This document shows, one piece after another, positions 5,852 to 52,688 of a DNA stretch of 64,000 nt. Every line of letters starts with the position of its first letter. The first letter of the stretch is position 1. This stretch comes from Lates calcarifer (Eukaryota > Chordata > Actinopteri > Centropomidae). The notes under the pieces were generated by a model that was given only the letters and a program-made list of their open reading frames with translations, ran no database searches and had not been told where the DNA came from. The stretch spans positions 1,420,008 to 1,484,007 of the forward strand of contig NC_066844.1 in NCBI RefSeq assembly GCF_001640805.2, written 5' to 3'. The position numbers and the translations under genes were made by a program.

Positions 5852-5852
<1 letters not shown>

Positions 5853-6788: not shown

Positions 6789-6790
<2 letters not shown>

Positions 6791-6824
<34 letters not shown>
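6791..6824. repeat. (AC)n microsatellite
   Basis: About 17 uninterrupted AC units, directly visible. Confidence 0.95.
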
Positions 6825-6826
<2 letters not shown>

Positions 6827-10154: not shown

Positions 10155-10162
10155 TATATAAA
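10155..10162 (+). promoter_or_regulatory. OR-4 TATA box
   Basis: TATATAAA in the context cctatataaactcc, very like the copy A-G promoter context ctatataactcc. It lies 500 bases upstream of the OR-4 ATG. The downstream noncoding exon boundary is not clear. Confidence 0.55.
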
Positions 10163-21908: not shown

Positions 21909-22973
21909 GTAAGTTTGATTATTTTAACTTTACATTCAAAACAGAAGAATGACTTTGTATTCTAATTATTATTAAAAATTAAATTTAAGTTTAGTCTCTT
22001 TCTCCTTTTTTCTTATTTGCTTTGCCTTGATTGTGAACAAAATGTATTCAACCTTTGAAAATGAGATATTCTATTGTTGGTCTTGTTTAATCAGTGGGGG
22101 GAATATTTTAATGTAATTTAATATTATTATTATTATTATTATTAATAATAATAATTTAATTTATGTAATTGTAGATAGTTTATTTCATTTGTATGTCTTA
22201 AAACAGATCCCAAAGTAGTTTTAATACAACTCTTATAAATGAAATTTTGGACTTTGCCTTTGCCAAAGTTCCTCAAGTTATTTATTCATCTAAAAGACAG
22301 TGAGATTCTGGATGGACTGTGTTTCCAGTGCTGACTGAACCGAGCAGGAACGAGCTGTAACATGAACTCAACCGGACGTCTGGACGGCCTGAATGACGCT
22401 TTCTCAAAGAACTTCATCGCCTTTGTTCTTGGCGTCATCATCAACTGCATTGATGGAGCTTTTGTCTACACCTACTTTAAGAGTGAAGTTTTATACCAAG
22501 ACCCCAGGTAACAACAGATGGCCAGGTTTGATTTCTGAACTGATGAGATTTGTCTGGCTACATCTCATCTACTGCACTCCTCTCTCCTGCAGGTATGTGC
22601 TGTACATCCATCTGGTGATCAACGACATGATCGTGCTGACGTTTTCTGTGGCGCTACTCTTCTTTACCAACACCATCGACCTGACCTTCGCTCCCTGCTG
22701 CATCTATACTGCTCATCTTAGTCACTACCACCAAGTAGGTGTGTGTTTGTGTTGACACAATTATTCCGCATGTGTGTTTCTGTACGGGTTTCCTTGGTTC
22801 TATCATTGTGTTTTTCTCTCAAAATGCAAATTCCACTTTAGGCTTTTAAAACGTTCAAGCATGAGACATGTTTACTGTATATTAGCCAGTCAACTCATGA
22901 AACAACTCTAAGCAATTAATCAATCAATTAAGCAATTTCCTCATGTTATTATTCAGGCACATTAATAAACAAA

Positions 22974-22975
<2 letters not shown>

Positions 22976-23026
<51 letters not shown>
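22976..23026. repeat. (AT)n microsatellite in copy A intron 2
   Basis: About 25 uninterrupted AT units, followed by a short imperfect extension to about 23040. Confidence 0.95.
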
Positions 23027-23028
<2 letters not shown>

Positions 23029-23040
23029 AATATATATATA

Positions 23041-23165
23041 AAAACATTTGATGGTTCAACATTCACAAATTAGCAGTTTTTTCTTGGTTTTATATCACAG
23101 TAAACTGAATATTTTGGATTTTAAAACTGTTGGTTGAATAAAATCAGACATTTAATCACACGACT
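23041..23165. repeat. Interspersed repeat fragment in copy A intron 2
   Basis: The stretch tatcacagtaaactgaatat ... ctgttggttgaataaaatc recurs in copy C intron 2 (32690-32820) and copy G intron 2 (about 50150-50230). It reads like the internal part of a common teleost nonautonomous repeat. Confidence 0.45.
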
Positions 23166-24128
23166 GTGATGAGCATTTCACTGTGTTTCAAACAGGCCTA
23201 TCTGTTGATGCCATGAGATGTCACTACAATCTACTAACAGAGTTGAGGATGCGACAAATGGTCGACAAACACACATCTACAACGCTAGTCGACTTTAATA
23301 AATTTTTACATGATGAAAGCTGTTATTTCCTTCAAAAAGCTATCACTGGCTGAGCAGACAACACATTCATGATGTTTCATTATATTATTTCATTGCAACC
23401 ACACAACTACACTGACAAATCCGACTGAACCAGTGACTCTGTGGAAGTTTCTTTCTTTGCCCAGTTAAAAATCCAACCTCACTCAGAAATAATACATCAG
23501 TTGACACTGAACACACAGAGTTAAAGGTTCAAAAACTCTGAGAAACATTACAAACATGAACAAAGACTTCAAGGACTAGTTAGAGTTACTAAAGTTTTTA
23601 CATCAGAAGTTTGGATTTGAAGCAGTTAACAAATCATTATCATGTGTTTTTATTTGTCTTCATCCAGGAACAGCCCTCTGAACCTGGCCGGAATGGCAGT
23701 CGAGCGTTACATTGCTGTCTGCCGACCTCTTCATCACGCCCAGATCTGCACTGTCCAGCGAGCCTATGCTCTGATTGCACTCATCTGGGTCGTCTCCCTC
23801 ATCCCCGCCCTCACAGATATCATGGTCGTCCTCGACACTCAGCCTCTCTCTATATTCTCAAGGATTGTCATCTGTTACCCTACATATCTCTACAACACAC
23901 CGTACCACAAGGCTCAAAGTGTGGCTGTTCAGGTGAAATGTTGATTGTTATTTCATTGATCTTAATTAGTTAAAGCTTTATTTATTTAGGAAATCTGAGG
24001 GATCAACATCTCTTTCATAGGAGAAACACGTCTACTAATTACATATCCACAAGGTCACAACAGGATTATTCTTTTACACTAAATAAGCTGGTACAACTTC
24101 AATGAATTCTGCGATGACCAAACTGTCA

Positions 24129-24735
24129 TGGGTTCGAGTACAAATTACAGGATGGAGGACCAATTGCAGACACAAAGTCAGGCTTTGGAGATGACACAAA
24201 TAATCCAGGTAAACATATGCAAAGGGAAAGGCAGTGTCCAAATTGCCAGTAGAGAGACCTAAAACAACAACCAGGAACTAAATCAGGACCAGGTACAAGC
24301 AGGGTGATAAGAACACTATGAACTAGGTCGGTATAAACAGTGGGAAACCAACAGGGGAACAGGTGAGAAGGCAGGTGAAGGAAATCAGCCGATTAGGAAC
24401 TGTCATCAAGTCCAAGGGCACCTGGTGGACAGGTGAGAAATAGCACATCTGGAAATGCAGGGGCACAGGGAAGTAAGAAAGTGGTTAAGGGCAGAAATTC
24501 TGACACATCATCTGTTGCTCATTGACTCAATTAATATGGTAGATTATGGACATCTCCATACTCGATCATCTGAAACTGGTTCCACACATTTTCACCTAAA
24601 GAACTCTGGTGCCAGTCCCAAAAAGCTGGCACCAGACAAAATTGTGGGTCCAAAAGTTGGAACCACAGTTGTCAGTGGTCACAGGATGAGCTACTGTAAG
24701 ATATTCTGCACTATTTTGAGAAAACACAAGCAATT
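24129..24735. repeat. Shared intron-3 block, copy A
   Basis: Begins atgggttcgagtacaaattac and ends near the motif gaaaacacaagcaa. The same block lies in intron 3 of copies C (33979-34445), D (37748-38212), E (41862-42338) and F (45863-46326). B (28861-28895) and G (about 51570-51740) keep only remnants. A diverged version lies downstream of copy B. It was therefore part of the ancestral repeat unit. No protein-coding content is recognised; it may be an old transposon insertion. Confidence 0.6.
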
Positions 24736-25740
24736 ATCTCTGGATATCTCTTAGGAATGCTGTACACGGTCGCTACAGACAGGCAACCTTAAAATGAAAG
24801 ATGTAATGTCATAAAAAGTAAGTTTAGAAAAAGCAAGAAAAACAGCTGCGTTCTGTCAGATATGATTTCTTTCCAACAGAACTTACCTCAACTTCTGCTA
24901 CCTAACATTCTTCTACTACTTATTTAGTTTATTGGCAGTTGGAAACAACAACAACTTTGTGCATTGCTGCCACCAACTGGTACAGAGTGTGAACTACATA
25001 ACGTTTGGTTCTCAAACCTGTCAAAATGCAGGCTGCCTCTCAAAAGGAGCAGGTTCTGAACTGGCTCCAGCACCGTCCAGGTGAAAAAAGATACCAGAGA
25101 AATCAGCCTATTAAACCACTGTGATAACTTCTATCAAAAGCCTTGAACAGATCTACAAAGAGACCAACACAGTGTTGCTTTTCATTAAGTTACATCAAGT
25201 TAACATCAGCCATTTCAGTTTACTGTGTAACCATGGAGAAGCTTGTTTTTATTTCATAGCTCAGTTTTAATGAGTTTTAATCCATAGCAGATTAAAGTGA
25301 CCATGGTTTGTGTCTTCATGTCTCCTCATCAGGTCCTTCTGTTTTCATTTGTCGTCCTGACTTTAATCATCACCTACCTGAAGGTCCTCTGTGCTGCCCA
25401 GGCAGCTTCTGGTTCTGACCAGGCCTCCGCCAGAAACGCCCGCAACACTATCCTGCTGCACGGAGTCCAGCTCCTCATCTGCACCCTGTCATTCATCTCT
25501 CCCCTCATCAACGTCATTTCACTTTCCATTTGGCCCCAGGGCAGAAGATTTATCCTCTTCACCACCTATCTGCTCACTGAACTGATTCCACGTCTGCTCA
25601 GTCCGCTCATCTACGGCGTCAGAGACAAGAAGTTCAGCAGCCTCATCAGGCTGCATGTCTTCTTTAAATACTCCAACTCTATAGAAAATAAGATGAACCT
25701 GGTAGCACCCTGGAGAAAGTCCAAACAGGTGCTACAGTGA

Positions 25741-26511
25741 AAGGCCTTCAAAGACTGATTTGTAAACTACAAACTAATGTCAGTTTCACTGAAAGCTCTG
25801 GTGGTTTCTGTCCATGGTCCAGTGACACAGCTACAACAGGCCTAACTAGAATCAAAGTCCAGTCTGAAAAAGACAGTCAGCTATAATAACATGCATTAAC
25901 CTCATATATAAATACTAATTTTCAGATGTGATCCATCTGAGGTCAGAGATCAACTGCCTTTGTTTCATATTTCTTTCCTGGAGGTCTGATCATTTATAGT
26001 CTCTGTAGCTCTACAATGGTCACATCTGTGTAGTTGATGATACATTAATTAATAAATCATCATTTATTTCTCTCCTCTGTCCTTTGAAAATGATCTCTAA
26101 TCACTGACACTTTATTTTGATGAAGTCTACCTATACACACAAACTGCATCAGATTGTTGATAAGTGATCAAGTCAACTTTTATATTCATGACAACAACGA
26201 TCCCAGCTGCTCATCAGCTGCTCACAACAATAAAAGAGTGTACTTTAAAATAAATGGGTCATAATGGATTAAAACATTTATTTTACCAATAAAGCTCATT
26301 TAACACATTTGTAATTCAAATATGACAATCTTCCTTCCTCAGCCCCTCTATCACCCCACCCCCCAACCCCCTCTCACACTCTCTCACACACACACACACA
26401 CACTACCTCACTGAAATCTATATAACTCCATCTCCTCCTGTTCCATCCACTACTTACAGTCAGTCGGTCAGCCCTGTACCTCCACACCGACCAGAGCAGT
26501 GAGATGTTGAA
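25741..26511 (+). promoter_or_regulatory. Copy A to B spacer, copy B promoter and 5' exon
   Basis: The first part is copy A 3' flank, with candidate poly(A) signals AATAAA at about 26051 and 26229. The rest is the shared promoter block with TATATAA at 26419-26425 and the 5' exon ending at 26511, with the upstream ATG at 26504. Confidence 0.55.
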
Positions 26512-27093
26512 GTAAGTTTGATTGTTTTAACTTTTCATTCAAAACAGAAGAATGACTTTGTATTCTAATTAACAACAGAAATAGAAAACATAGAGGCACT
26601 GATGGATTTATTCTTTGTCATGTTACAGATTTACAAGAAATAAAAATTTAAGTTTAATCTCTTTCTCGTTTTTTTCTTATTTGCTTTGCCTTGATTGTGA
26701 ACAAAATGTATTCAACCTTTGAAAATGTGATATTCTATTGTTGGTCCTGTTTAATCAGTGGAGGAATATTTTAATGTAATTTACTAATATTATTTCATTT
26801 GTATTTCTTAAAACAGATCACAAAGTTAGTTTTAATACAACTGTAGTCTCTCTTATAAATGAAACTTTGGACTTCACCTTTGCCACAGTTCCTTAAAATC
26901 ATACTGGTTCTTACACTGGTGAAATGTTCACATTATCAAATGAGACATCCAGTCTTTTATAACATTTTATGTAAACTGACCAGCTGAGCAAGAAAATCTG
27001 TATTTCAAGTTATTTATTCATCTAAAAGACAGTGAGATTCTGGATGGACTGTGTTTCCAGTGCTGACTGAACCGAGCAGGAACGAGCTGTAAC

Positions 27094-29505
27094 ATGAACT
27101 CAACCGGACGTCTGGACGGCCTGAATGAGGCTTTCTCAAAGAACTTCATCGCCTTTGGTCTCTGCATCATCATCAACTGCATCAATGGAGCTTTTGTCTA
27201 CACCTACTGTAAGAGTGAAGTTTTACACCGAGACCCCAGGTAACAACAGATGGCCAGGTTTGATTTCTGAACTGATGAGATTTGTCTGGCTACATCTCAT
27301 CTACTGCACTCCTCTCTCCTGCAGGTATGTGCTGTACATCCATCTGGTGATCAACGACATGATCATGCTAACGTTTTCTGTGGCACTGCACATCTTTACC
27401 TACACCATCCCTCTGACGTTTGCTCCCTGCTGCATTATACTGCTCATCTTACTCACTACCACCAAGTAGGTGTGTGTTTGTGTTAACACAATTATTTTGC
27501 ATGTGTGTTTCTGTTGCGTTTCCTTGGTTCTATCATTGTGTTTTTCTCTCAAAATGCAATTTCCACTTTTCAGGCTTTTAAAATGTTCAAGGATGAGATG
27601 TGTTTACTGTATATTAACCAGTCAACTCATGAAACAGCTCTAAGCAACTAATTAGGAATCAAGATTTTATAAGAGCTGCTACATGAACAACAATGTACGA
27701 GGTATAGCTATTAAAAAACGAGACTAATTCAGTAATACAATTCTATTGAACATTTTTCAGTGTCTTTCTCTTTCAACATACTCCCCCCTCCTGCATCAAC
27801 ACACTGCTGCATTTGGGTCTTCTACTTATCAAAGCAGTGCAGTAGGTCTTCTCTAAACAGCTGTCTCAGAACCTCTGTCGTTCTTTTCTTAACTTCTGAC
27901 ACAGAGTCAAAACGTGTTCCTTTGAGCACAGATTTGATCTTAGCAAAAAGGAAAAAGTCACACAGTGCTAGTTCAGGTGAATAGGGAGGGTGATCAAGAA
28001 GCACTGTGATTTGTTTTTGGGCCAGAAACTGCTTTAACGAGAGGGCAGTGTGAGATGGTACACAGAAGTTTTGGAACAACTTTGGCACACACTTGTCATA
28101 TTGAAACATTCAAACACATGTGCACGTAACATGCAGTGTTCCCCATACAATGTACAAAGAGATTCAGCTGCTGTTTTGTTCAATTTCACCAAAAATTTCA
28201 AGATAATGGGTTGCTTAACTTTTAGGCTAATAATTTTCCAACGCCTTAGGAAAAACATATGCACTTCATTTAGTAAGTATCAGTGAACTAAAGAGGTCTG
28301 ACTATTCTCCTGAAGGAACAGCACTGCAGCTGTTAAATAAGGTATGGTCAAAGGTCAGGCAGCTAACAAATCATTCTGTGTTTTTATTTGTCTTCATCCA
28401 GGAACAGCCCTCTGAACCTGGCCGGCATGGCAGTCGAGCGTTACATTGCTGTCTGCCGACCTCTTCATCACGCCCAGATCTGCACTGTCCAGCGAGCCTA
28501 TGCTCTGATTGCACTCATCTGGGTCGTCTCCCTCATCCCCGCCCTCACAGATATCATGGTCGTCCTCGCCACTCAGCCTCTCTCTGTATTCTCAAGGATT
28601 ATCTTTTGTTACCCTTCATATCTGTACAACACACCGTACCACAAGGCTCAAAGTATGGCTGTTCAGGTGAAATGTTGATTGTTATTTCATTGATCTTAAT
28701 TAGTTTAAGCTTTATTTATTTAGGAAATCTGAGGGATCAACATCTCTTTCAGAGGAGAAACCCGTCTACTAATTACATATCCACAAGGTCACAACAAGAT
28801 GATTCTTTTACACTAAATAAGCTGGTACAACTTCAATGAATCCTGCGATGACCAAACTGTCATGGGTTCGAGTACAAATTACAGGATGGAGGACCAAATG
28901 AACACACTTGAACAGATCTACAAAGAGACCAACACAGTGTTGCTTTTCATCAAGTTACATCAAGTTAACATCAGCCATTTCAGTTTACTGTGTAACCATG
29001 GAGAAGCTTGTTTTTATTTCATAGCTCAGTTTTAATGAGTTTTAATCCATAGCAGATTAAAGTGACCATGGTTTGTGTCTTCATGTCTCCTCATCAGGTC
29101 CTTCTGTTTTCATTTGTCGTCCTGACTTTAATCATCACCTACCTGAAGGTCCTCTGTGCTGCCCAGGCAGCTTCTGGTTCTGACCAGGCCTCCGCCAGAA
29201 ACGCCCGCAACACTATCCTGCTGCACGGAGTCCAGCTCCTCATCTGCACCCTGTCATTCATCTCTCCCCTCATCAACATCATTTCACTTTCCATTTGGCC
29301 CCAGGGCCGCACAGTTATGCTCTTCATAAACTATCTGCTCACTGAACTGATTCCACGTCTGCTCAGTCCGCTCATCTACGGCGTCAGAGACAAGAAGTTC
29401 AGCAGCCTCATCAGGCTGCATGTCTTCTTTAAATACTCCAACTCTATAGAAAATAAGATGAACCTGGTAGCACCCTGGAGAAAGTCCAAACAGGTGCTAC
29501 AGTGA
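27094..29505 (+). CDS. Copy B: intact four-exon odorant receptor, 319 aa
   Basis: This serves as the reference for copies A-G. Exons are 27094-27239 (146 bp), 27325-27465 (141), 28402-28666 (265) and 29098-29505 (408), with introns in phases 2, 2 and 0. Residues 1-49 hold the N-terminus (sequon NST at 2-4) and TM1. The first junction splits Arg49 in DPR|YVLYIHLVIND at the first cytoplasmic loop. The second splits Lys96 in TTTK|NSPLNLAG inside TM3. The third follows Gln184, before TM5. Landmarks are MAVERYIAVC (105-114), ARNTILLHGVQ (220-230) and PRLLSPLIYGVRDKKF (270-285). Copy B is distinctive in FGLCIIINCING (TM1), Cys at residue 37, and GRTVMLFINYLL in the TM6-TM7 region. Intron 2 contains a mariner fossil. 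Family assignment rests on clear similarity to OR-5 and OR-6. The ligand is unknown. Confidence 0.88.
27696..28270 (-). mobile_element. Internally deleted mariner-family transposon
   Basis: On the minus strand an N-terminal piece (about 28264-28095; LKFLVKLNKTAAESLC ... AHVFECF) matches the first helix-turn-helix of mariner transposases. It then jumps, in another frame, to the C-terminal catalytic part (28109-27822; PPYSPELALCDFFLFAKIK, the DD34D third aspartate region, followed by RFDSVSEVKKRT). The middle, including the first catalytic aspartates, is missing. A plausible terminal repeat starts at 27698 after a TA dinucleotide (cgaggtatagctatt). The matching other end is not seen. It sits in intron 2 of copy B and is absent from the same intron of the other copies. 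Confidence 0.75.
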
Positions 29506-29639
29506 AAGGCCTTCAAAGACTGATTTGTAAACTACAAACTAATGTCAGTTTCACTGAAAGCCCTGATGGCTTCTGTCCATGGTCCAGTGACACAGCTACA
29601 GCAGGCCTGACTAAAATCAAAGTCCTGTCTGAAAAGGAC

Positions 29640-34800: not shown

Positions 34801-35455
34801 AAAAAGATACCAGAGAAATCAGCCTTTTAAACCACTGTGATAACTTCTATCAAAAGCCTTGAACAGATCTACAAAGAGACCAACACAGTGTTGCTTTTCA
34901 TTAAGTTACATCAAGTTAACATCAGCCATTTCAGTTTACTGCGTAACCATGGAGAAGCTTGTTTTTATTTCATAGCTCAGTTTTAATGAGTTTAATCAAT
35001 GGCAGATTAAAGTGACCATGGTTTGTGTCTTCATGTCTCCTCATCAGGCCCTTCTGTTTTCATTTGTCGTCCTGACTTTAATCATCACCTACCTGAAGGT
35101 CCTCTGTGCTGCCCAGGCAGCTTCTGGTTCTGACCAGGCCTCCGCCAGAAACGCCCGCAACACTATCCTGCTGCACGGAGTCCAGCTCCTCATCTGCACC
35201 CTGTCATTCATCTCTCCCCTCATCAACACCATTTCACTTTCCATTTGGCCCCAGGGCAGAAGATTTATCCTCTTTACCACCTATCTGCTCACTGAACTGA
35301 TTCCTCGTCTGCTCAGTCCACTCATCTACGGCGTCAGAGACAAGAAGTTCAGCAGCCTCATCAGGCTGCATGTCTTCTTTAAATACTCCAACTCTATAGA
35401 AAATAAGATGAACCTGGTAGCACCCTGGAGAAGGTCCAAACAGGTGCTACAGTGA
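31838..35455 (+). CDS. Copy C: intact four-exon odorant receptor, 319 aa
   Basis: Exons are 31838-31983, 32069-32209, 33522-33786 and 35048-35455, with the same lengths and phases as copy B. Distinguishing residues are SKHFITFGLGV in TM1, MLTLSVALHFF in TM2, CCILLLILVATTK at the TM3 start, and exon 4 beginning ALLF instead of VLLF. The TM6 region is GRRFILFTTYLL, as in copy A. Introns 2 and 3 are 1312 and 1261 bp. The whole frame is open. Confidence 0.87.
32640..32825. repeat. Interspersed repeat fragment in copy C intron 2
   Basis: Corresponds to the fragment in copy A intron 2, with an additional left part (caatttctccatcaaaacaa). A neighbouring CTTT-rich stretch lies at about 32430-32450. 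Confidence 0.45.
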
Positions 35456-36588: not shown

Positions 36589-39246
36589 ATGAACTCAACC
36601 GGACGTCTGGACAGCCTGAATGAGGCTTTCTCCAGGAACTTCATCACCTTTGTTTTCGGTGTCATCATCAACTGCATTGATGGAACCTTTGTCTACACCT
36701 ACTTTAAGAGTGAAGTCTTATGCCGAGACCCCAGGTAACAACAGATGGCCAGGTTTGATTTCTGAACTGATGAGATTTGTCTGGCTACATCTCATCTACT
36801 GCACTCCTCTCTCCTGCAGGTATGTGCTGTACATCCATCTGGTGATCAACGACATGATCGTGCTGACGTTTTCTGTGGCGCTGCACATCTTTACCTACAC
36901 CATCCCCCTGACCTTCGCTCCCTGCTGTATCATACTGTTCATCTTAGTCACTACCACCAAGTAGGTGTGTGTTTGTGTTAACACAATTATTCTGCATGTG
37001 TGTTTCTGTCAGGTTTCCTTGGTTCTATCATTGTGTTTTTCTCTCAAACTGCAATTTCCACATTACAAACAAGAACAAAGACTTCAAGGACTAGTTAGAG
37101 CTACTTAAGTCAGAGGTCTGACTATTCTCCTGATGGAACAGCACTACTGCTGTTGTGGTGACCAGTAAGGTCAAAGGTCAGGCAATAGTGCTAACCACTG
37201 CACCATCATGCTGCCTGGCTTTGAAACTTTGAACAGTTATTCTGGATTTAAAGCAGCTAACAAGAAGTTTTTATTTATCTTCATCCAGGAACAGCCCTCT
37301 GAACCTGGCCGGAATGGCAGTCGAGCGTTACATTGCTGTCTGCCGACCTCTTCATCACGCCCAGATCTGCACTGTCCAGCGAGCCTATGCTCTGATTGCA
37401 CTCATCTGGGTCGTCTCCCTCATCCCCGGCCTCACAGATATCATGGTCGTCCTCGCCACTCAGCCTCTCTCTGTATTCTCAAGGATTGTCATCTGTTACC
37501 CTACATATCTGTACAACACACCGTACCACAACGCTCAAAGTGTGGCTGTTCAGGTGAAATGTTGATTGTTATTTCATTGATCTTAATTAGTTTAAGCTTT
37601 ATTTATTTAGGAAATCTGAGGGATCAACATCTCTTTCATAGGAGAAACCCGTCTACTAATTACATATCCACAAAGTCACAACAAGATGATTCTTTTACAC
37701 TAAATAAGCTGGTACAACTTTAATGAAGACTGCAATGACCAAGCTGTCATGGGTTTGAGTACAAATTACAGGACGGAGGACCAAGTGCAGACACAAAGTC
37801 AGGCTTTGGAGACGACACAGACAATCCAGGTAAACGTATGCAAAGGGAGAAGCAGGACGTCAGGTCACAAAAACAGACACAATGTCCAAATTGCCAGTAG
37901 AGAGATCTCAAACAGCATTCAGGAACTAAATCAGGACCAGGTACAAGTAGGGTGATAAGAACATTATGAACTAGGTCGGTATAAACAGGGGAACAGGTGA
38001 GAAGGCAGGTGAAGGGGATCAGCTGATTAGGTATAGTGATAAAGTCAAAGGGCACCTGGTTCCACACATTTCCACCAAAAGAAGTCTGGTGCCATTTCCA
38101 AAAAGCTGGCACCAGACAAAATTGAGAGTCCAAAAGTTGGAACCACTGTTGTCAGTGGTCACAGGACAAACTACTGCAAGAGATTCTGCGCTATTTTTAA
38201 AAAACACAAGCTATTATTTCTGTATCTCTGAATATCTGGTATGAATGCTGTACGCATTCACTCCACGCAGACAATCTTCAGATGCAAGAAGTAATGACTC
38301 AAAGTAAATTTGTAAAAAGCAAGAAAAACAGCTGTATTCTGTCAGATATGATTTCTTTCCAACAGAAATTACCCCAACTTCTGCTACCTAACATTCTACT
38401 TCTTCTTTAGTTTATTGGCGGTTAGCAAACAACAACTTGGTGCATTGCTGCCACCAACTGGTACAGAGTGTGAACTACATAACGTTTGGTTCTCAAACCT
38501 GTCAAAATGCAGGCTGCCTCTCAAAAGGAGCAGGTTCTGAACTGGCTCCAGCACTGTCCAGGTGAAAAAAGATACCAGAGAAATCAGCCTTTTAAACCAC
38601 TGTGATAACTTCTATCAGATCAGATCTATCAGATCTACAAAGAGACCAACACAGTGTTGCTTTTCATCAAGTTACATCAAGTTAACATCAGCCATTTCAG
38701 TTTACTGTGTAACCATGGAGAAGCTTGTTTTTATTTCATAGCTCAGTTTTAATGAGTTTTAATCCATAGCAGATTAAAGTGACCATGGTTTGTGTCTTCA
38801 TGTCTCCTCATCAGGTCCTTCTGTTTTCATTTGTCGTCCTGACTTTAATCATCACCTACTTGAAGGTCCTCTGTGCTGCCCAGGCAGCTTCTGGTTCTGA
38901 CCAGGCCTCCGCCAGAAACGCCCGCAACACTATCCTGCTGCACGGAGTCCAGCTCCTCATCTGCACCCTGTCATTCATCTCTCCCCTCATCAACCTCATT
39001 TCACTTTCCATTTGGCCCCAGAACCGAAGATTTATCCTCTTCACCACCTATCTGCTCACTGAACTGATTCCTCGTCTGCTCAGTCCACTCATCTACGGTG
39101 TCAGAGACAAGAAGTTCAGCAGCCTCATCAGGCTGCACTTCTGCTTTAAAAACTGCACCTCTATAGAAAATAAGATGAACCTGGTAGCACCTGGAGAAGG
39201 TCCAAACAGGTGCTACAGTGAATGGCCTTCAAAGACTGATTTGTAA
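36589..39246 (+). CDS. Copy D: four-exon odorant receptor with altered C-terminal tail, 327 aa
   Basis: Exons are 36589-36734, 36820-36960, 37289-37553 and 38815-39246. Exon 4 is 432 bp because a one-base deletion after NLVAP replaces the usual WRRSKQVLQ ending with GEGPNRCYSEWPSKTDL and a later stop. The change lies beyond TM7, so the receptor core is complete. Other differences are SLNEAFSRNFITFVFGV in the N-terminus and TM1, Cys at residue 43, QNRRFILFTTYLL in the TM6 region, and LHFCFKNCTS in the proximal tail. Intron 2 is only 328 bp. Confidence 0.85.
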
Positions 39247-40428: not shown

Positions 40429-43351
40429 ATGAACTCAACCGGACGTCTGGACGGCCTGAATGACGCTTTCTCAAAGAACTTCATCGCCTTTGTTCTTGGC
40501 GTCATCATCAACTGTATCAATGGAGCTTTTGTCTACACCTACTTTAAGAATGAAGTCTTATACCGAGACCCCAGGTAACAACAGATGGCCAGGTTTGATT
40601 TCTGAACTGATGAGATTTGTCTGGCTACATCTCATCTACTGCACTCCTCTCTCCTGCAGGTATGTGCTGTACATCCATCTGGTGATCAACGACATGATCA
40701 TGCTAACGTTTTCTGTGGCGCTGCACATCTTTACCTACACCATCCCTCTGACGTTTGCTCCCTGCTGCATTATACTGCTCATCTTACTCACTACCACCAA
40801 GTAGGTGTGTGTGTTTGTGTTAACACAATTATTTTGCATGTGTGTTTCTGTTGCGTTTCCTTGGTTCTATCATTGTGTTTTTCTCTCAAAATGCAATTTC
40901 CACTTTTCAGGCTTTTAAAATGTTCTAGGATGAGATGTGTTTACTGTATATTAACCAGCCAAGTCATGAAACAGCTCTAAGCAATTAATCAGACAGTTAA
41001 ATAATATTTTTAGTCATGTCTGTCCATTTACATGACCCATTCCTCGTGATTATTCAGACACATTAATAAACAGACCAAATATTCTGGTATGTAAACCCAG
41101 CAGCATTTAACAGTATAATAAAATGATCTCATACAAATATGAATATAATTATGAAAATACCTTAGGAACATGCAACCTAATCAATTTCTCTGTCAAAACT
41201 TTCAAGCTAAAATATCAAAACATTTGATGGTCCAATGTTCACAAATTAGCTGAGTTAAAGAGTCGAAAACTCTGAGACACATTACAAACAGGAACAAAGA
41301 ATACAAGGACTAGTTAGAGCTACTAAAGTTTTTACATCAGAGGTTTGAATTTAAAGCAGCTAACAAATCATTATCATGTGTTTTTATTTATCTTCATCCA
41401 GGAACAGCCCTCTGAACCTGGCCGGAATGGCAGTCGAGCGTTACATTGCTGTCTGCCGACCTCTTCATCACGCCCAGATCTGCACTGTCCAGCGAGCCTA
41501 TGCTCTGATTGCACTCACCTGGGTCGTCTCCTTCATACCCGGCCTCACAGATATCATGATCGTCCTCGCCACTCAGCCTCTCTCTATATTCTCAAGGATT
41601 ATCTTCTGTTTCCCTTCATATCTGTACAACACACCGTACCACAATGCTCAAAGTGTGACTGTTCAGGTGAAATGTTGATTGTTATTTCATTGATCTTAAT
41701 TAGTTTAAGCTTTATTTATTTAGGAAATCTGAGGGATCAACATCTCTTTCATAAAAGAAACACGTCTACTAATTACATATCCACAAAGTCACAACAAGAT
41801 GATTCTTTTACACTAAATAAGTTGGTACAATTTTAATGAAGACTGCGATGACTAAGCTGTCATGGGTTCGAGTATAAATTACAGGATGGAGGACCAAGTG
41901 CAGACACAAAGTCAGGCTTTGGAGACGACACAGACAATCCAGGTAAATGTATGCAAAGGGAGAAGCAGGACGTCAGGTCACAAAAACAGACATAATGTCC
42001 AAATTGCCAGTAGAGAGATCTCAAACAGCATTCAGGAACTAAATCAGGACCAGGTACAAGCAGGGTGATAAGAACACTATGAACTAGGTCGGTATAAACA
42101 GTGGGAAACCAACAGGGGAACAGGTGAGAAGGCAGGTGAAGGAAATCAGCTGATTAGGTATAGTGATAAAGTCAAAGGGCACCTGGTTCCACACATTTCC
42201 ACCAAAAGAAGTCTGGTGCCATTTCCAAAAAGCTGGCACCAGACAAAATTGAGAGTCCAAAAGTTGGAACCACTGTTGTCAGTGGTCACAGGACAAACTA
42301 CTGCAAGAGATTCTACGCTATTTTGAAAAAACACAAGCTATTATTTCTGTATCTCTGAATATCTGGTATGAATGCTGTACGCATTCACTCCACGCAGACA
42401 ATCTTCAGATGCAAGAAGTAATGACTCAAAGTAAATTTGTAAAAAGCAAGAAAAACAGCTGTATTCTGTCAGATATGATTTCTTTCCAACAGAAATTACC
42501 CCAACTTCTGCTACCTAACGTTCTACTTATTCTTCTTTAGTTTATTGGCGGTTGGCAAACAACAACTTGGTGCATTGCTGCCACCAACTGGTACAGAGTG
42601 TGAACTACATAACATTTGGTTCTCAAACCTGTCAAAATGCAGGCTGCCTCTCAAAAGGAGCAGGTTCTGAACTGGCTCCAGCACCGTCCAGGTGAAAAAA
42701 AGATACCAGAGAAATCAGCCTATTAAACCACTGTGATAACTTCTATCAAAAGCTTTGAACAGATCTACAAAGAGACCAACACAGTGTTGCTTTTCATTAA
42801 GTTACATCAAGTTAACATCAGCCATTTCAGTTTACTGTGTAACCATGGAGAAGCTTGTTTTTATTTCATAGCTCAGTTTTAATGAGTTTAATCCATAGCA
42901 GATTAAAGTGACCATGGTTTGTGTCTTCATGTCTCCTCATCAGGTTCTTCTGTTTTCATTTGTCGTCTTGACTTTAATCATCACCTACCTGAAGGTCCTC
43001 TGTGCTGCCCAGGCAGCTTCTGGTTCTGACCAGGCCTCCGCCAGAAACGCCCGTAACACTATCCTGCTGCACGGAGTCCAGCTCCTCATCTGCACCCTGT
43101 CATTCATCTCTCCCCTCATCAACCTCATTTCTCTTTCCATTTGGCCCCAGAACCGAAGATTTATCCTCTTCACCAACTATATGCTCACTGAACTGATTCC
43201 ACGTCTGCTCAGTCCGCTCATCTACGGCGTCAGAGACAAGAAGCTCAGCAGCCTCATCAGGCTGCATGTCTTCTTTAAATACTCCAACTCTATAGAAAAT
43301 AAGATGAACCTGGTAGCACCCTGGAGAAGGTCCAAACAGGTGCTACAGTGA
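40429..43351 (+). CDS. Copy E: intact four-exon odorant receptor, 319 aa
   Basis: Exons are 40429-40574, 40660-40800, 41402-41666 and 42944-43351. Specific residues include FKNEVLYRDPR at the end of exon 1, LTWVVSFIPGLTDIMIVL in TM4, IIFCFPSYLY in the second extracellular loop, FTNYMLTE near TM7, and KKLSSL where the others have KKFSSL. The 5' intron is shorter than in B and C because sequence before the second exon is missing (the caaatgagacatccagtc block). The frame is open. Confidence 0.87.
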
Positions 43352-44691: not shown

Positions 44692-47280
44692 ATGAACTCA
44701 ACCGGACGTCTGGACGGCCTGAATGAGGTTTTCTCAAAGAACTTCATCGCCTTTGTTCTCGGCATCATCATCAACTGCATTGATGGAGCTTTTGTCTACA
44801 CCTACTTTAAGAGTGAAGTTTTATACCAAGACCCCAGGTAACAACAGATGGCCAGGTTTGATTTCTGAACTGATGAGATTTGTCTGGCTACATCTCATCT
44901 ACTGCACTCCTCTCTCCTGCAGGTATGTGCTGTACATCCATCTGGTAATCAATGACATGATCGTGCTGACGTTTTCTGTGGCGCTGCACATCTTTACCTA
45001 CACCATCGACTCTGACCTTCGCTCCCTGCTGCATTCATACTGCTCATCTTACTCACTACCACTAAGTAGGTGTGTGTTTGTGTTAACACAATTATTTTGC
45101 ATGTGTGTTTCTGTCGGGTTTCCTTGGTTCTATCATTGTGTATTTCTCTCAAATTGCAATTTCCACATTACAAACAAGAACAAAGACTTCAAGGACTAGT
45201 TAGAGCTACTTAAGTCAGAGGTCTGACTATTCTCCTGATGGAACAGAACTGCTGCTGTTGTGGTGACCAGTAAGGTCAAAGGTCAGGCGACAGTGCTAAC
45301 CACTGCACCACCATGCCGCCTGGCTTTGAAAATTTGAACAATTATTCTGGATTTAAAGCAGCTAACAAATCATTATCATGTGTTTTTATTTGTCTTCATC
45401 CAGGAACAGCCCTCTGAACCTGGCCGGAATGGCAGTCGAGCGTTACATTGCTGTCTGCCAACCTCTTTATCACGCCCAGATCTGCACTGTCCAGCGAGCC
45501 TATGCTCTGATTGCACTCACCTGGGTCGTCTCCCTCATCCCTGCCCTAACAGATATCATGGTCGTCCTCGACACTCAGCCTCTCTCTGTATTCTCAAGGA
45601 TTGTCATCTGTTACCCTACATATCTCTACAACACACCGTACCACAACGCTCAAAGTGTGGCTGTTCAGGTGAAATGTTGATTGTTATTTCATTGATCTTA
45701 ATTAGTTTAAGCTTTATTTATTTAGGAAATCTGAGGGATCAACATCTCTTTCATAGGAGAAACCCGTCTACTAATTACATATCCACAAGGTCACAACAGG
45801 ATAATTCTTTTACACTAAATAAGCTGGTACAACTTCAATGAATTCTGCGATGACCAAACTGTCATGGGTTCGAGTACAAATTACAGGATGGAGGACCAAT
45901 TGCAGACACAAAGTCAGGCTTTGGAGATGACACAAATAAGCCAGGTAAACATATGCAGGGAAAGGTAGTGTCCAAATTGCCAGTAGAGAGACCTAAAACA
46001 ACAACCAGGAACAAAATCAGGACCAGGTACAAGTAGGGTGAAATACTATTCTGAAAATAGTGAAACCTATGAACTAGGTCGGTATAAGCAGTGGGAAACC
46101 AACAGGGGAACAGGTGAGAAGGCAAGTGAAGGGGATCAGCTGATTAGGTATAGTGATAAAGTCAAAGGGCACCTGGTTCCACACATTTCCACCAAAAGAA
46201 GTCTGGTGCCATTTCCAAAAAGCTGGCACCAGACAAAATTGAGAGTCCAAAAGTTGGAACCACTGTTGTCAGTGGTCACAGGATGAGCTACTGCAAGAGA
46301 TTCTACGCTATTTGGAGAAAACACAAGCAATTATTTCTGTATCTCTGAATATCTGTTATGAATGCTGTACGCGGTCACTACACACAGACAACCTTCAGAT
46401 GCAAGAAGTAATGACTCAAAGTAAATTTGTAAAAAGCAAGAAAAGCAGCTGCGTTCTGTCAGATATGATTTCTTACCAACAGAAATTACCCCTACCTAAC
46501 ATTCTGCTACTTCTTCTTCAGTTTATTGGCGGTTGGCAAACAACAACTTGGAGCATTGCTGCCACCAACTGGTACAGAGTGTGAACTACATAACATTTGG
46601 TTCTCAAACCTGTCAAAATGCAGGAAAAAAGATACCAGAGAAATCAGCCTATTAAACCACTGTGATAACTTCTATCAAAAGCTTTGAACAGATCTACAAA
46701 GAGACCAACACAGTGTTGCTTTTCATCAAGTTGCATCAAGTTAACATCAGCCATTTTAGTTTACTGTGTAACCATGGAGAAGCTTGTTTTTATTTCATAG
46801 CTCAGTTTTAATGAGTTTAATCCATAGCAGATTAAAGTGACCATGGTTTGTGTCTTCATGTCTCCTCATCAGGTCCTTCTGTTTTCATTTGTCGTCCTGA
46901 CTTTAATCATCACCTACTTGAAGGTCCTCTGTGCTGCCCAGGCAGCTTCTGGTTCTGACCAGGCCTCCGCCAGAAACGCCCGCAACACTATCCTGCTGCA
47001 CGGAGTCCAGCTCCTCATCTGCACCCTGTCATTCATCTCTCCCCTCATCAACGTCATTTCACTTTCCATTTGGCCCCAGAACCGAAGATTTATCCTCTTC
47101 ACCAACTATCTGCTCACTGAACTGATTCCTCGTCTGCTCAGTCCGCTCATCTACGGCGTCAGAGACAAGAAGTTCAGCAGCCTCATCAGGCTGCATGTCT
47201 TCTTTAAATACTCCAACTCTATAGAAAATAAGATGAACCTGGTAGCACCCTGGAGAAAGTCCAAACAGGTGCTACAGTGA
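44692..47280 (+). pseudogene. Copy F: four-exon odorant receptor with two +1 insertions in exon 2
   Basis: Exons are 44692-44837, 44923-45065, 45404-45668 and 46873-47280. Exon 2 is 143 bp, two more than normal: one extra base near 45011 (gac-tctgacc) and one near 45034 (catt-catactg). With the usual donor, exon 3 is read out of frame. The next GT, four bases downstream (aagtag|gtgtgt), would make exon 2 147 bp and restore the frame with no stop, but the TM3 start would become a polar, non-membrane-like segment. Exons 1, 3 and 4 are open. Exon 3 differs at CQPLYHAQ. Confidence 0.7.
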
Positions 47281-48040
47281 AAGGCCTTCAAAGACTGATT
47301 TGTAAACTACAACCTAATGTCAGTTTCACTGAAAGCTCTGGTGGTTTCTGTCCATGGTCCAGTGACACAGCTACAACAGGCCTGACTAGAATCAAAAGGT
47401 CCAGTCTGAAAAAGACACAGTCGGCTATAATAAGACGCATTAACCTCATATATAAATACTAATTTTCAGATGTGATCCATCTGAGGTCAGAGATCAACTG
47501 CCTTTGTTTCATATTTCTTTCCTGGAGGTCTGATCATTTATAGTCTCTGTGGCTCTACAATGGTCACATCTGTGTAGTTGATGATACATCAATTAATAAA
47601 TCATCATTTATTTCTCTCCTCTGTCCTTTGAAAATGATCTCTAATCACTAACACTTTATTTTGATGAAGTCTACCTATACACACAAACTGCATCAGACTG
47701 CTGATAAGTGATAAAGTCAACTTTTATATTCATGACAACAACGATCCCAGCTGCTCATCAGCTGCTCACAACAATAAAAGAGTGTACTTTAAAATAAATG
47801 GGTCATAATGGATTAAAACATTTATTATTTATCAAATTTAACACATTTGTAATTCAAAAATGACAATCTTCCTTCCTCAGCCCCTCTATCACCCCCCCAC
47901 ACACACACACACACACCCTACCTCACTGTAGTATTATCACTGAAATCTATATAACTCCATCTCCTCCTGTTCCATCCACTACTTACAGTCAGTCGGTCAG
48001 CCCTGTACCTCCACACCGACCAGAGCAGTGAGATGTTGAA
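47281..48040 (+). promoter_or_regulatory. Copy G promoter block, TATA box and 5' exon
   Basis: Full-length shared block with a longer CA run. TATATAA is at 47948-47954, the upstream ATG at 48033 and the exon end at 48040. Confidence 0.6.
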
Positions 48041-48631
48041 GTAAGTTTGATTGTTTTAACTTTTCATTCAAAACAGAAGAATGACTTTGTATTCTAATTA
48101 ACAACAGAAATAGAAAACATAGAGGCATTGATGGATTTATTCTTTGTCGTGTTACAGATTTACAAGAAATAAAAATTTAAGTTTAGTCTCTTTCTCCTTT
48201 TTTTCTTATTTGCTTTGCCTTGATTGTGCACAAAATGTATTCAACCTTTGAAAATGAGATATTCTATTGTTGGTCTTGTTTAATCAGTGGAGGAATATTT
48301 TAATGTAATTTACTAATTGTAGATAGTTTATTTCATTTGTATTTCTTAAAACAGATCACAAATTTAGTTTTAATACAACTGTAGTCTCTCTTATAAATGA
48401 AACTTTAGACTTCACCTTTGCCACAGTTCCTTAAAATCATACTGGTTCTTACACCGGTGAAATGTTCACATTATCAAATGAGACATCCAGTCTTTTATAA
48501 CATTTTATGTAAACTGACCAGCTGAGCACGAAAATCTGTATTTCAAGTTATTTATTCATCTAAAAGACAGTGAGATTCTGGATGGACTGTGTTTCCAGTG
48601 CTGACTGAACCGAGCAGGAACGAGCTGTAAC

Positions 48632-51600
48632 ATGAACTCAACCGGACGTCTGGACGGCCTGAATGACGCTTTCTCAAAGAACTTCATCACCTTTGTTTTT
48701 GGCATCATCATCAACTGTATCAATGGAACTTTTGTCTACACCTACTTTAAGAGTGAAGTTTTACACCAAGACCCCAGGTAACAACAGATGGCCAGGTTTG
48801 ATTTCTGAACTGATGAGATTTGTCTGGCTACATCTCATCTACTGCACTCCTCTCTCCTGCAGGTATGTGCTGTACATCCATCTGGTGATCAACGACATGA
48901 TCATGCTAACGTTTTCTGTGGTGCTGCACATCTTTACCTACACCATCCCCCTGACCTTCGCTCCCTGCTGCATCATACTGCTCATCTTAGTCACTACCAC
49001 TAAGTAGGTGTGTGTTTGTGTTAACAAAATCATTCTGCATGTGTGTCAGGTTTCCATCATTGCCACTGAACATAGCACATGTTCTAATGTGTGTGTCTCA
49101 AACTGAAATTTCCACTTGACAGGCTCTTAAAACATTCAAGGATGAGGTGTGCTTACTGTATATTAGCCAGCAAACACATGAAACAGCCCTGTGCAGTGAA
49201 CTGAGATTGACATCTGCGATTAATCAGATAGTTATTCATTTCAAACTCACAAAAACTAATGACTTGAAGAAAACTAAACTCTGTTAAGATGAGACCATCA
49301 GTGAGTTTAAATAAAGAACAGCTGTGTATCAATAGAGTAAACCTCAGCATGAGCTTTAGTTTAACAAGATGTAAATCTGATATAACAAAGCAGTTCTGTT
49401 AAATTTATGTTTTTATCTTTTATCACAACTTAAATTAGCACCATGAAAACATCATTAATGCACCAAGCAAACAATAACTGAGAGACATGAGCTCAGCCAC
49501 AGTAACTTAATACCGGACACCAGGACAGGAGGATACGAGCAGAAACCAGCAGAGCAGAGCCTCAACAGGCTCAGAGATTTCCAGTGGTGCTGATTAATTC
49601 AAGTATTGTGAGTAATTTGGAGGTACTTGTACTTTACTTGAGCATTTCCATTTTCTGCTACTTTTACCACTACACCACTGCAGTTCAGAGGAAAATATTC
49701 TACTTTAAGTTATGAGTTATGTTGCAGATTCAGATTTTGATTACAACATACAATCAACAAGCTAATTATGATGTATTATTATAAGTTATGAAAAGACTTT
49801 ATGAACCACCAAAGAAGAACTTCACAAGTTTCCCAGCAGTATATAAATGAATTATATTCCAACTATGTAATATTCATCACTCTGAAATGGGCCATCAGAG
49901 TACTCAGCCTCAGTAGGGCCTACTTCTTTCACCAGTGCTGAGTTATACTGTTTGGTTTCTGTCTACTGTTTTAGCTTGTTTATATCTTCCATTTTATTTA
50001 AAATCGTGTTTGTCTTCTCTTGTCTCTTGTTTGTATATTACCATTTTATATTTTCTTGTGTTTGCCTTTCTTTAATGCCTTTTGTGTTTTATATACAGAC
50101 CTTAAACTTGCCCTGTTGCTATGGCTACACCAGTTGCATTCCAAATGGCTGTTTCTTTTGTCTTTTATCACAGTAAAAACTGAATATTATGGGTTATAAA
50201 ACTGTTGGTTGGACAAAACAGGACATTTACTGTCACCACCGTATACTTGGCATTTCAGTGTTCTGGTGTTTCATTACTGTGTCAAACAGGCCTACCTGTA
50301 GATGCCATGAGATGTCACTGCCACTGACAGAGTTGAGGACGCGACAAACGGTCGACGAACACAAACACTAGACGACTTTAGCAGACTTTAACACGATAAA
50401 ACACGACGGTGACACTGTTATTTCCTTCAAAAAGGAAGGAGAAGGAGACGACACTTCTAGCGGGTTTAGCCTTTTCTGCAACAACACCTCATTAGCAGCG
50501 GGAGGGAGACCAGGTGTTTCCATCAGGGTAGAGGATCAGACCTGTGGGGGAGCAACGACAGTTCAAAGAGCCCCGCCCCCCTTTACCGCAGAGGGTGTGT
50601 TAGATTTAACCTTTGCCGACTAGAGTACGTCGGAGTGGAGCAGGGACTGGGCGGGTTCAAATTAAAACAGACAGGTCTCAAAGCAAAGGAAAAACCCAGT
50701 GATGGAAAGAGCACGAAAAAGTACCAGTATCACAGTATAAAAATACTCCATTACAGTAAAAGTCCTGCATTTAAAATCATTAATTATAATTCTAATTAAA
50801 TAATTGAGTAAAAGCAAAGAAGTGTCATTGGAAAAATGTTATCAAAAGTAAAAAAAAAAAAAAAAAAAAAAACTACTTTGATTAACTGTATTATTTCAGT
50901 GCAACTTACCAAACAGTCTTCATTCTCACACCACCACACTGACAAATCAGATTCAACCACAGACTCTGTCCAACAGTTTCTTTCTTTGCCCAGTTGGAAA
51001 TCCAGCCTCATTCAGAGGTAATATGTTAGTTAACACTGAACAACACCAAGTTAAAGATTCAAAAACTCTGGGACCAGTTAGTGCTACTAAAGTAGTTAAG
51101 TTAGAGGTCTGACTATTCTCCTGCAGGAACAGGATGTTGATGTTGTCATGACTAGTAAGGTCAAGGTCAGGTATATGTCTCTAGATGTCCAGGCTCCATT
51201 AAAATTTGAACAGTTATTCTGGATTTAAAGCAGCTAACAAATCATTATCATGTGTTCTTATTTATCTTCATCCAGGAACAGCCCTCTGAACCTGGCCGGC
51301 ATGGCAGTCGAGCGTTACATTGCAGTCTGCCGACCTCTTCATCACGCCCAGATCTGCACTGTCCAGCGAGCCTATGCTCTGATTGCACTCATCTGGGTCG
51401 TCTCCCTCATCCCCGCCCTCACAGATATCATGGTCGTCCTCGCCACTCAGCCTCTCTCTGTATTATCAAGGATTGTCATCTGTTACCCGTCATATCTGTA
51501 CAACACACCGTACCACAAGGCTCAAAGTGTGGCTGTTCAGGTGAAATGTTGATTGTTATTTCATTAATTGAATCAGGGCCAGGTACAGGTGGTAAGAACA

Positions 51601-52688
51601 CTATGCAGAGATGGTAAACTGGTTCCACACATTTCCACAGAGAGAAGTCCTGGTCCAAAAGTTGGAACTACTGTTGTCAGTGGTTATTGGACGAGCTACT
51701 GCAAGAGATTTTGTGCCATTTTGAGAAAACACAACTTACGGGGAACCTTCAAATGAAAGATGTAATGACTTAAAAAGTACATTCATCAAAAGCAAAAAAA
51801 ACAGCTGTATTCTGTCAGATATGATTTCTTTCCAACAGAAATTACCCCAACTTCTGCTACATAGGTTCTCCTTCTTCTTTAGTTTATTGGCGGTTGGCAA
51901 CAACAACTTGGTGCATTGCTGCCACCAACTGCTACAGAGTGTGAACTACATAACATTTGGTTCTCAAACCTCTCAAAATGCAGGCTGCCTCTCAAAAGGA
52001 GCAGGTTGCTGAACTGGCTCTAGCACCGTCCAGGTGGAAAAAAGATACCAGAGAAATCAGCCTATTAAACCACTGTGATAACTTCTATCAGATCAGATCT
52101 ATCAGATCTACAAAGAGACCAACACAGTGTTGCTTTTCATTAAGTTACATCAAGTTAACATCAGCCATTTCAGTTTACTGTGTAACCATGGAGAAGCTTG
52201 TTTTTATTTCATAGCTCAGTTTTAATGAGTTTAATCCATAGCAGATTAAAGTGACCATGGTTTGTGTCTTCATGTCTCCTCATCAGGTCCTTCTGTTTTC
52301 ATTTGTCGTCCTGACTTTAATCATCACCTACCTGAAGGTCCTCTGTGCTGCCCAGGCAGCTTCTGGTTCTGACCAGGCCTCCGCCAGAAACGCCCACAAC
52401 ACTATCCTGCTGCACGGAGTCCAGCTCCTCATCTGCACCCTGTCATTCATCTCTCCCCTCATCAACCTCATTTTACTTGCCACTTTGCCCCAGGACCGCA
52501 CCAACATCCTCTTCGTCAATTTTCTGTTCACCAATGTGCTCCCACGTCTGCTCAGTCCACTCATCTACGGCGTCAGAGACAAGAAGTTCAGCAGCCTCAT
52601 CAGGCTGCACTTCTGCTGTAAATACTGTAACTCTATAGAAAATAAGGTGAACCTGGTGGGACTCAGAAGAAGGTCCAAACAGAGGTGA
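48632..52688 (+). CDS. Copy G: intact four-exon odorant receptor, 317 aa, divergent TM6-TM7 region
   Basis: Exons are 48632-48777, 48863-49003, 51276-51540 and 52287-52688. It is the last receptor of the array. Exon 4 departs from the other copies: LILLATLPQDRTNILFV in place of the usual ISLSIWPQ-RRFILF region, then NFLFTNVLPR, NAHNTILL instead of NARNTILL, and a shorter basic tail ending RRRSKQR. Intron 2 is 2272 bp, inflated by several repeats. The frame is open. A candidate poly(A) signal is AATAAA at 53132-53137. Confidence 0.86.
49600..49870. repeat. Teleost interspersed repeat in copy G intron 2
   Basis: Reads ggaggtacttgtactttact, gagcatttccattttctgct, then accactgcagttcagaggaa. This is the style of a widespread fish repeat built from TACTTGAGTA-like units. 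Related fragments appear near 50700-50845, 55170-55240 and 56150-56275. Assigned from memory. Confidence 0.5.
50150..50230. repeat. Interspersed repeat fragment in copy G intron 2
   Basis: Contains cacagtaaaaactgaatatt and ctgttggttggacaaaacag, matching the fragments in introns 2 of copies A and C. Confidence 0.45.
50700..50872. repeat. Interspersed repeat fragment and poly(A) run
   Basis: A fragment of the TACTTGAGTA-type repeat (gtaaaagtcctgcatttaaa) precedes a pure run of 23 A at 50850-50872. Confidence 0.55.

What the first reader, a model, noticed from the sequence alone, without database searches (positions are those of the whole stretch)
22362..52688. A tandem array of odorant receptors whose coding region is split into four exons
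Seven consecutive copies share exons of 146, 141, 265 and about 408 bp with introns in phases 2, 2 and 0 and clean GT-AG borders. Five are fully open across all junctions. Vertebrate odorant receptor coding regions are classically a single exon; a receptor interrupted in the first cytoplasmic loop, in TM3 and before TM5 is a marked departure. Purifying maintenance of three junctions in five copies argues for function.
Basis: partly seen in the sequence, partly recalled or inferred. Interest (0 to 1): 0.85.

Follow-up and report, generated by a model that had tools for sequence, protein, structure and literature searches.

The report
Four-exon fish smell-receptor gene array
A barramundi chromosome carries seven tandem copies of a fish odorant-receptor-like gene whose protein code is split over four exons; the split looks real, but it matches one already reported in a cichlid fish, and the public annotation already has it for three of the five intact copies.

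Summary
Seven tandem copies have coding exons of about 146/141/265/408 bp. All 42 GT/AG borders are kept. Five copies (2, 3, 4, 5, 7) are open; copies 1 and 6 are frameshifted in exon 2. The window is barramundi, Lates calcarifer. NCBI proteins equal the spliced products of copies 2, 4 and 7 letter for letter.

The claimed departure is not new. Azzouzi et al. 2014 (PMC4122780) found 46 of 507 cichlid ORs with 2-4 coding exons; their BurORs.T129 has introns at codons 48, 96 and 184, the same three codons as here. The window also holds a four-exon V-type gene (17919-20325) with the published V spacing, and two-exon genes upstream. Split ORs are published in mammals, Sillago and, with transcripts, an anchovy.

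Constraint on the protein is modest (dN/dS about 0.59). Expression could not be tested.

The parts
22362..25740 (+). T-type copy 1: exons 22362-22507, 22593-22734 (+1 base, frameshift), 23668-23932, 25333-25740; frame broken
27094..29505 (+). T-type copy 2: exons 27094-27239, 27325-27465, 28402-28666, 29098-29505; open, 319 aa, identical to NCBI protein P0001
31838..35455 (+). T-type copy 3: exons 31838-31983, 32069-32209, 33522-33786, 35048-35455; open, 319 aa (NCBI model P0004 is the same for the first 183 aa and has an inserted stretch before exon 4)
36589..39246 (+). T-type copy 4: exons 36589-36734, 36820-36960, 37289-37553, 38815-39246; open, 327 aa with altered C-tail, identical to NCBI P0007
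40429..43351 (+). T-type copy 5: exons 40429-40574, 40660-40800, 41402-41666, 42944-43351; open, 319 aa (NCBI model P0085 is the same for the first 183 aa, then reads past the exon 3 donor and ends at 187 aa)
44692..47280 (+). T-type copy 6: exons 44692-44837, 44923-45065 (+2 bases, frameshift), 45404-45668, 46873-47280; frame broken
48632..52688 (+). T-type copy 7: exons 48632-48777, 48863-49003, 51276-51540, 52287-52688; open, 317 aa, identical to NCBI P0009; most diverged in exon 4 and the 3' flank
26413..27093 (+). probable promoter and 5' non-coding exon of copy 2 (TATA-like 26413-26434, donor after 26511, acceptor before 27061); the same elements lie before 7 of 7 copies; transcription not shown
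27240..27324 (+). intron 1 of copy 2, 85 bp, identical in all seven copies
17919..20325 (+). V-type four-exon OR gene: exons 17919-18121, 18718-18856, 19127-19552, 20050-20325; introns after codon 67 (phase 2), 114 (phase 0), 256 (phase 0)
   Evidence: published V spacing
14470..16446 (+). U-type gene: exon 1 within the open frame from 14470, ending at 14637 (true first base not fixed), exon 2 from 15639; frame break between about 16139 and 16159
1344..12303 (+). four W-type two-exon OR genes: W07 (1344 or 1389 to 1544, 1791-2603), W08 (4240-4434, 4595-5413), W09 (7748-7900, 8017..; frame break near 8593), W10 (10623-10817, 11449-12303); one phase 0 intron in the first cytoplasmic loop

Best explanation
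This is a tandem expansion, in barramundi, of the known four-exon 'T' kind of teleost OR131-2-like (type 2 / family H) odorant receptor. Each unit has its own TATA-like promoter, a short 5' non-coding exon, and four coding exons that are spliced to one ordinary seven-helix receptor of about 319 residues. Shown: seven copies, the three shared intron positions, five open frames, identity of three products with annotated proteins, and agreement of the three interrupted codons, by number and mostly by sequence, with a published cichlid gene. Inferred: that the copies are transcribed in olfactory sensory neurons and sense water-borne odorants, and that the introns have no special job beyond ordinary splicing. 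The copies appear to exchange sequence by conversion or unequal crossing-over, and two have lost their frame, as in birth-and-death evolution of receptor families.
For: Gene models and borders; stops in all three introns of all 7 copies. Product: Pfam 7tm_1 at 74.1 bits against a cut-off of 30.5; 100% identity to NCBI 'odorant receptor 131-2-like' of Lates calcarifer on a contig of the same length, 27,842,965 bases. BurORs.T129 of a cichlid: introns at codons 48 (phase 2, CCC.AG), 96 (AAG) and 184 (phase 0, GTC.CAG); here 48 (phase 2, CCC.AG), 96 (AA|G) and 184 (phase 0, GTT.CAG in copy 2). V and T genes bear neighbouring locus tags elsewhere: Larimichthys crocea LYC03368/03369, Channa striata 001035/001034. 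dN/dS 0.59 over 10 pairs of five open copies, 0.55 without copy 7. Neutral simulation: five open frames and all 60 splice bases kept in 0.18% of 4000 runs at 3% and in none at 5% change per lineage. Mosaic copies: 364 of 630 pairs of informative sites fail the four-gamete test.
Against: No RNA evidence was available. Pfam's olfactory family 7tm_4 stays below its cut-off (22.5 against 27), and the best solved-structure matches are non-olfactory class A receptors, with consOR1 further down. Type 2 receptors are also expressed outside the nose in Xenopus (PMC3324471, abstract). dN/dS of 0.59 is weak constraint, and in exon 3 it is 0.81, or 1.10 without copy 7. Intron 2 is listed as phase 0 in the cichlid table and is phase 2 here; I could not see the cichlid sequence to settle the one-base difference. 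Table 8 of the same paper lists only 1 of the 2 family T genes as multi-exon, so the family letter alone does not guarantee the structure.
Confidence: 0.85

Rival explanations
1. The array is a set of decaying pseudogenes: recent copies whose open frames only reflect their youth and mutual exchange.
For: Two of 7 copies are frameshifted; dN/dS is 0.59 overall, 0.81 in exon 3 and 1.10 there without copy 7; copy 4 has an altered C-tail.
Against: Five copies are open, all 42 splice dinucleotides are intact, a neutral model rarely gives this (assuming independence, which the mosaic pattern weakens), promoter and 5' exon are nearly invariant (1 variable column of 104), and full-length relatives exist in many other fishes.
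Confidence: 0.07
2. The split structure is an artefact of gene prediction: the gap segments are retained in the real messenger or the true exons differ.
For: Public models disagree among themselves: P0002, P0003, P0004 and P0085 use other borders near exons 2-4.
Against: Reading into any of the three introns in the usual frame meets a stop within 3 codons in 7 of 7 copies; intron 2 varies from 328 to 2272 bp and intron 3 from 431 to 1400 bp while the exon lengths hardly vary; a cichlid gene has the same three interrupted codons; three NCBI proteins equal the four-exon models and two more agree for the first 183 aa, over introns 1 and 2.
Confidence: 0.03
3. The genes are class A receptors with a non-olfactory job that carry an olfactory name by annotation only.
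For: 7tm_4 below cut-off; solved-structure ranking led by peptide receptors; type 2 receptors expressed in brain, skin and testes of Xenopus (abstract).
Against: Tandem expansion with broken copies, and resemblance to other clustered OR131-2-like genes of the genome, are typical of chemoreceptors; type 2 eta genes are expressed in frog olfactory neurons (abstract).
Confidence: 0.2

Closest known systems
BurORs.T129, four-coding-exon OR of Haplochromis burtoni, family T (Azzouzi et al. 2014, PMC4122780; outline with abstract, passages, sections 8 and 9 seen)
   Same: Three introns at codons 48 (phase 2, last codon CCC.AG), 96 (AAG) and 184 (phase 0, last codon GTC.CAG; GTT.CAG in copy 2 here).
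   Different: Intron 2 is tabulated as phase 0 there and is phase 2 here; family T has 2 genes in five cichlids, 1 of them multi-exon, against a seven-copy array here.
Cichlid family V four-exon ORs (BriORs.V122, ZebORs.V149; same paper)
   Same: Equal to the window's V gene at 17919-20325: phases 2, 0, 0; codon spacings 47 and 142; last codons CAC.AG, CTT.CTG, GTG.CAG.
   Different: Not the array itself: none of the three V intron positions coincides with a T position. Family V also has 2 genes with two exons.
Cichlid families W and U, two or three coding exons (same paper)
   Same: One phase 0 intron in the first cytoplasmic loop, often after CAC.CAG, as in the window's W08, W10 and U genes.
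   Different: The T intron 1 lies 20 nt further downstream in the alignment.
Split OR genes of human and mouse (Barnes et al. 2020, PMC7055050, passages seen, most of the abstract among them)
   Same: OR coding sequence split by an intron, expressed like intronless ORs.
   Different: Two exons, intron in over 90% of them in the N-terminal domain or TM1; no link in origin tested.
Spliced MOR genes of Coilia nasus (PMC5387026, passages and section 17 seen)
   Different: Four genes; intron positions not given in the section read.

Membership tests
class A (rhodopsin-like) GPCR | Pfam 7tm_1 above curated cut-off | tested here: met
   74.1 bits against 30.5 for the copy 2 product
vertebrate olfactory receptor as modelled by Pfam 7tm_4 | score above the curated cut-off of 27 | tested here: not met
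   22.5 bits; so the odorant label rests on relatives, not on this model
teleost OR131-2-like (type 2 / family H) receptors | full-length sequence relationship to proteins of that name | tested here: met
   100% to the Lates protein; other fish proteins of that name in the list at about 58-76% over 90% or more of the query (120 of 785 hits listed). That OR131-2-like belongs to type 2 / family H is recalled.
cichlid four-exon T lineage | introns in codons 48, 96, 184 | tested here: met
   codons 48, 96, 184; phase of the second differs by one base from the printed table
cichlid four-exon T lineage | common descent shown by a tree with the cichlid T protein itself | tested here: inconclusive
   two cichlid OR131-2-like proteins (Oreochromis, Archocentrus) fall in one percomorph clade with the array, 100/99, but T129 itself was not available and their exon numbers are unknown
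functional odorant receptor | expression in olfactory sensory neurons and response to an odorant | not testable with these tools
   no RNA or assay data at hand

The most novel reading that the evidence does not exclude
This locus is a hot spot of repeated intron gain in a vertebrate GPCR family: the W/U, V and T lineages, side by side within about 71 kb, carry at least six distinct intron positions (three in V, three in T, none in common; the W/U intron is one base from V's first), gained in separate lineages of a receptor family whose other members in this genome include many with a single coding exon. Two of them (T introns 1 and 3) sit at CAG|GT sites that leave a 6-base in-register repeat, as gain by a small tandem duplication would. 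Vertebrates are thought to gain introns very rarely (recalled). Loss from an intron-rich ancestor is not excluded.
Probability: 0.35. Interest if true: 0.5.

Novelty: new member of a known kind. Interest (0 to 1): 0.27.

Why it matters
It illustrates that fish OR surveys restricted to long single-exon reading frames can miss whole groups: Policarpo et al. 2024 (passages seen) speak of two or three exons in rare cases, while four-exon T and V genes lie side by side here. The locus, with three neighbouring lineages that differ in intron position, is a usable natural series for asking whether and how introns are gained in vertebrate genes.

Tried and rejected
Intron 1 as a structured RNA: folding is unremarkable (z -0.89). 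Introns as copies of a repeat elsewhere in the genome: the search did not complete, so this is open. Diversifying selection (dN above dS) as the reason why exons 1 and 2 vary more than intron 1: not supported, dN/dS is 0.64 and 0.21 there (five open copies). An Olf1/EBF-type site upstream of the copies: none with the simple patterns used, 0 of 7 copies, in 800 bases before the 5' exon landmark (the motif is recalled). Transcript evidence through short-contig proteins (source 'lgn': P0090, P0098, P0106, P0113, P0215): full-length products from contigs of 1.3-2.0 kb, but the kind of library behind them and the gene structure in those fishes are unknown, so they prove nothing. Paper searches for the barramundi genes: 'odorant receptor 131-2' with intron (0 papers), 'odorant receptor 131-2-like' (0 papers), 'OR131-2' with olfactory (3 papers, one about the zebrafish protein), and a six-term search with Lates calcarifer (20 of 137 listed); no title or abstract start shown there names this array. 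Structure prediction was not run, because the spliced protein is not a plain translation of the window.
Full report
Identity of the window. A whole-genome search placed it at G000:C12:1420008-1484007. The spliced product of copy 2 is 100% identical to an NCBI protein 'odorant receptor 131-2-like' of Lates calcarifer on a contig of 27,842,965 bases, the length of C12. The window is therefore barramundi.

The observation. Landmark searches found seven copies of each border and start. Joining the exons gives coding exons of 146, 141, 265 and about 408 bp, phases 2, 2 and 0, with five of seven copies open (2, 3, 4, 5, 7). Copy 1 has one and copy 6 two extra bases in exon 2. All 42 GT/AG dinucleotides are intact, in the broken copies too. 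Intron 1 is 85 bp in all copies; intron 2 ranges from 328 to 2272 bp and intron 3 from 431 to 1400 bp. Reading on into an intron in the usual frame of the exon before it meets a stop after 1, 1 and 3 codons for introns 1, 2 and 3 in 7 of 7 copies (for copies 1 and 6 this takes no account of their frameshifts). A TATA-like stretch and a probable 5' exon with donor GTAAG lie before 7 of 7 copies, and a conserved acceptor lies just before the start codon in 7 of 7; a short upstream reading frame would begin in that 5' exon. These untranslated parts are inferred from conservation.

What the protein is. Pfam 7tm_1 matches well above its cut-off, 7tm_4 (olfactory) below it. The nearest solved structures by sequence are motilin, galanin, nociceptin and adenosine receptors, with an olfactory consensus receptor further down. 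Of 785 homologues with E up to 0.001, 120 are listed; many are fish proteins named odorant receptor 131-2-like. Counting from the ERY arginine, intron 2 falls at 3.37, in the middle of TM3; the cichlid paper's label OUT1 for that codon may be a slip of topology prediction.

Prior art. Azzouzi et al. 2014 (PMC4122780; abstract, passages and sections 8 and 9 seen) list 46 of 507 complete cichlid ORs with two to four coding exons. Their Table 7 gives BurORs.T129 introns at codon 48 phase 2 after CCC.AG, codon 96 phase 0 after AAG, and codon 184 phase 0 after GTC.CAG. Here they are codon 48 phase 2 after CCC.AG, inside codon 96 (AA|G), and codon 184 phase 0 after GTT.CAG in copy 2. Their Table 8 lists 2 family T genes, of which 1 is multi-exon. 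Table 7's two V genes have introns at 62/109/251 and 80/127/269; the V gene in this window has 67/114/256 with the same phases and the same spacings of 47 and 142. Contig numbers of the cichlid W, U, V and T genes are close to one another, and V and T have neighbouring locus tags in Larimichthys and Channa, so the locus order seems old; this is inference. [quoted passage not shown] 28 of 138 Sillago OR genes with 2-5 coding exons (PMC10093537, passages); four spliced OR genes with transcript support in Coilia nasus (PMC5387026, passages and section 17). Policarpo et al. 2024 allow for two or three exons in rare cases (PMC10869828, passages), while two other papers state that ORs have no coding introns (PMC3308321, passages; PMC8661438, passages).

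Annotation. NCBI proteins equal copies 2, 4 and 7 as spliced here; the models for copies 3 and 5 agree for the first 183 residues, after which the copy 3 model has an extra stretch and the copy 5 model ends by reading past the exon 3 donor. So the array is in the databases, in part wrongly modelled.

Neighbours and intron positions. Upstream on C12 lie two-exon W-type genes (ten located, W01-W10, of which W07-W10 are in the window), one U-type and one V-type gene. On a protein alignment in nucleotide units the introns sit at 213 (W), 212/351/786 (V) and 233/377/648 (T). The W intron and V intron 1 are one base apart and may be one intron; no other position is shared. A tree of 62 rows (5 T, 1 V, 6 W, 34 single-exon, 16 named relatives of unknown exon number) makes the W rows one clade (100/98) and the T rows one clade (100/99), but leaves the order of V, W, T and the single-exon genes open, with warnings of long branches. 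Broken or incomplete genes T1, T6, W02, W04, W06, W09 and U were left out. The 34 single-exon rows are the reading frames of at least 285 aa in the 17 loci L016-L032; all 34 match copy 2, the two from L032 only weakly. The genome search scored 125 of 614 candidates, so the family is larger than what was examined. Gain in separate lineages is the simpler reading if the ancestor was intronless, but the tree does not prove it. Of ten introns looked at, T introns 1 and 3 leave in-register repeats of six bases (CAGGTA, TCAGGT), W09 one of five, and the other seven three or fewer; splice consensus alone favours such repeats, so this is a lead only.

Selection and exchange. Over the 10 pairs of five open copies dN/dS is 0.59 (exon 1 0.64, exon 2 0.21, exon 3 0.81, exon 4 0.69; the altered tails of copies 4 and 7 inflate exon 4); without copy 7 it is 0.55 overall and 1.10 in exon 3. 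A neutral simulation with independent copies keeps all five frames and all 60 splice bases in 0.18% of 4000 runs at 3% change per lineage and in none at 5%. The copies are not independent: 364 of 630 pairs of the 36 informative sites in exons 1, 3 and 4 fail the four-gamete test over seven copies, which points to conversion or unequal crossing-over. Intron 1 has 0 variable sites of 85, against 49 of 287 in exons 1 and 2 (Fisher p 1.7e-6) and 34 of 607 columns in the 5' intron (p 0.015). Exon silent sites differ too (dS about 0.12 and 0.16 in exons 1 and 2, five copies), so this is not simple adaptive change in the protein; a recent conversion tract over intron 1 or constraint on it would both fit. 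These tests treat sites as independent and were made after seeing the pattern.

Verdict. Real, correctly described, ordinary for this receptor lineage, already published as a structure and mostly annotated. The remaining open points are expression and the origin of the introns.

Noticed in passing
27240-27324 and the same intron in six other copies: Intron 1 is identical in all seven copies although exons 1 and 2 on either side vary at 49 of 287 sites.
   Followed up: partly
17919-20325: A single V-type OR gene with four coding exons at positions different from those of the array; matches cichlid family V.
   Followed up: yes
1344-12303 and L013-L014: Tandem W-type two-exon OR genes, four of ten with frame breaks (W02, W04, W06, W09).
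   Followed up: partly
26476-26511 and six other copies: The probable 5' non-coding exon ends with an ATG that, if spliced to the exon 1 acceptor, would open a five-codon upstream reading frame (read).
   Followed up: no
49004-51275: Intron 2 of copy 7 is 2272 bp against 328-1312 bp in the others, apparently through inserted sequence.
   Followed up: no
62220-62777: Open stretch encoding the pore end and C-terminus of a voltage-gated potassium channel (best solved match KCNB1) downstream of the array.
   Followed up: partly
P0002, P0003, P0004, P0085 (public models of copies in this array): These public protein models differ from the spliced products described here: altered exon 2/3 joins, an extra stretch, a truncation.
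   Followed up: yes
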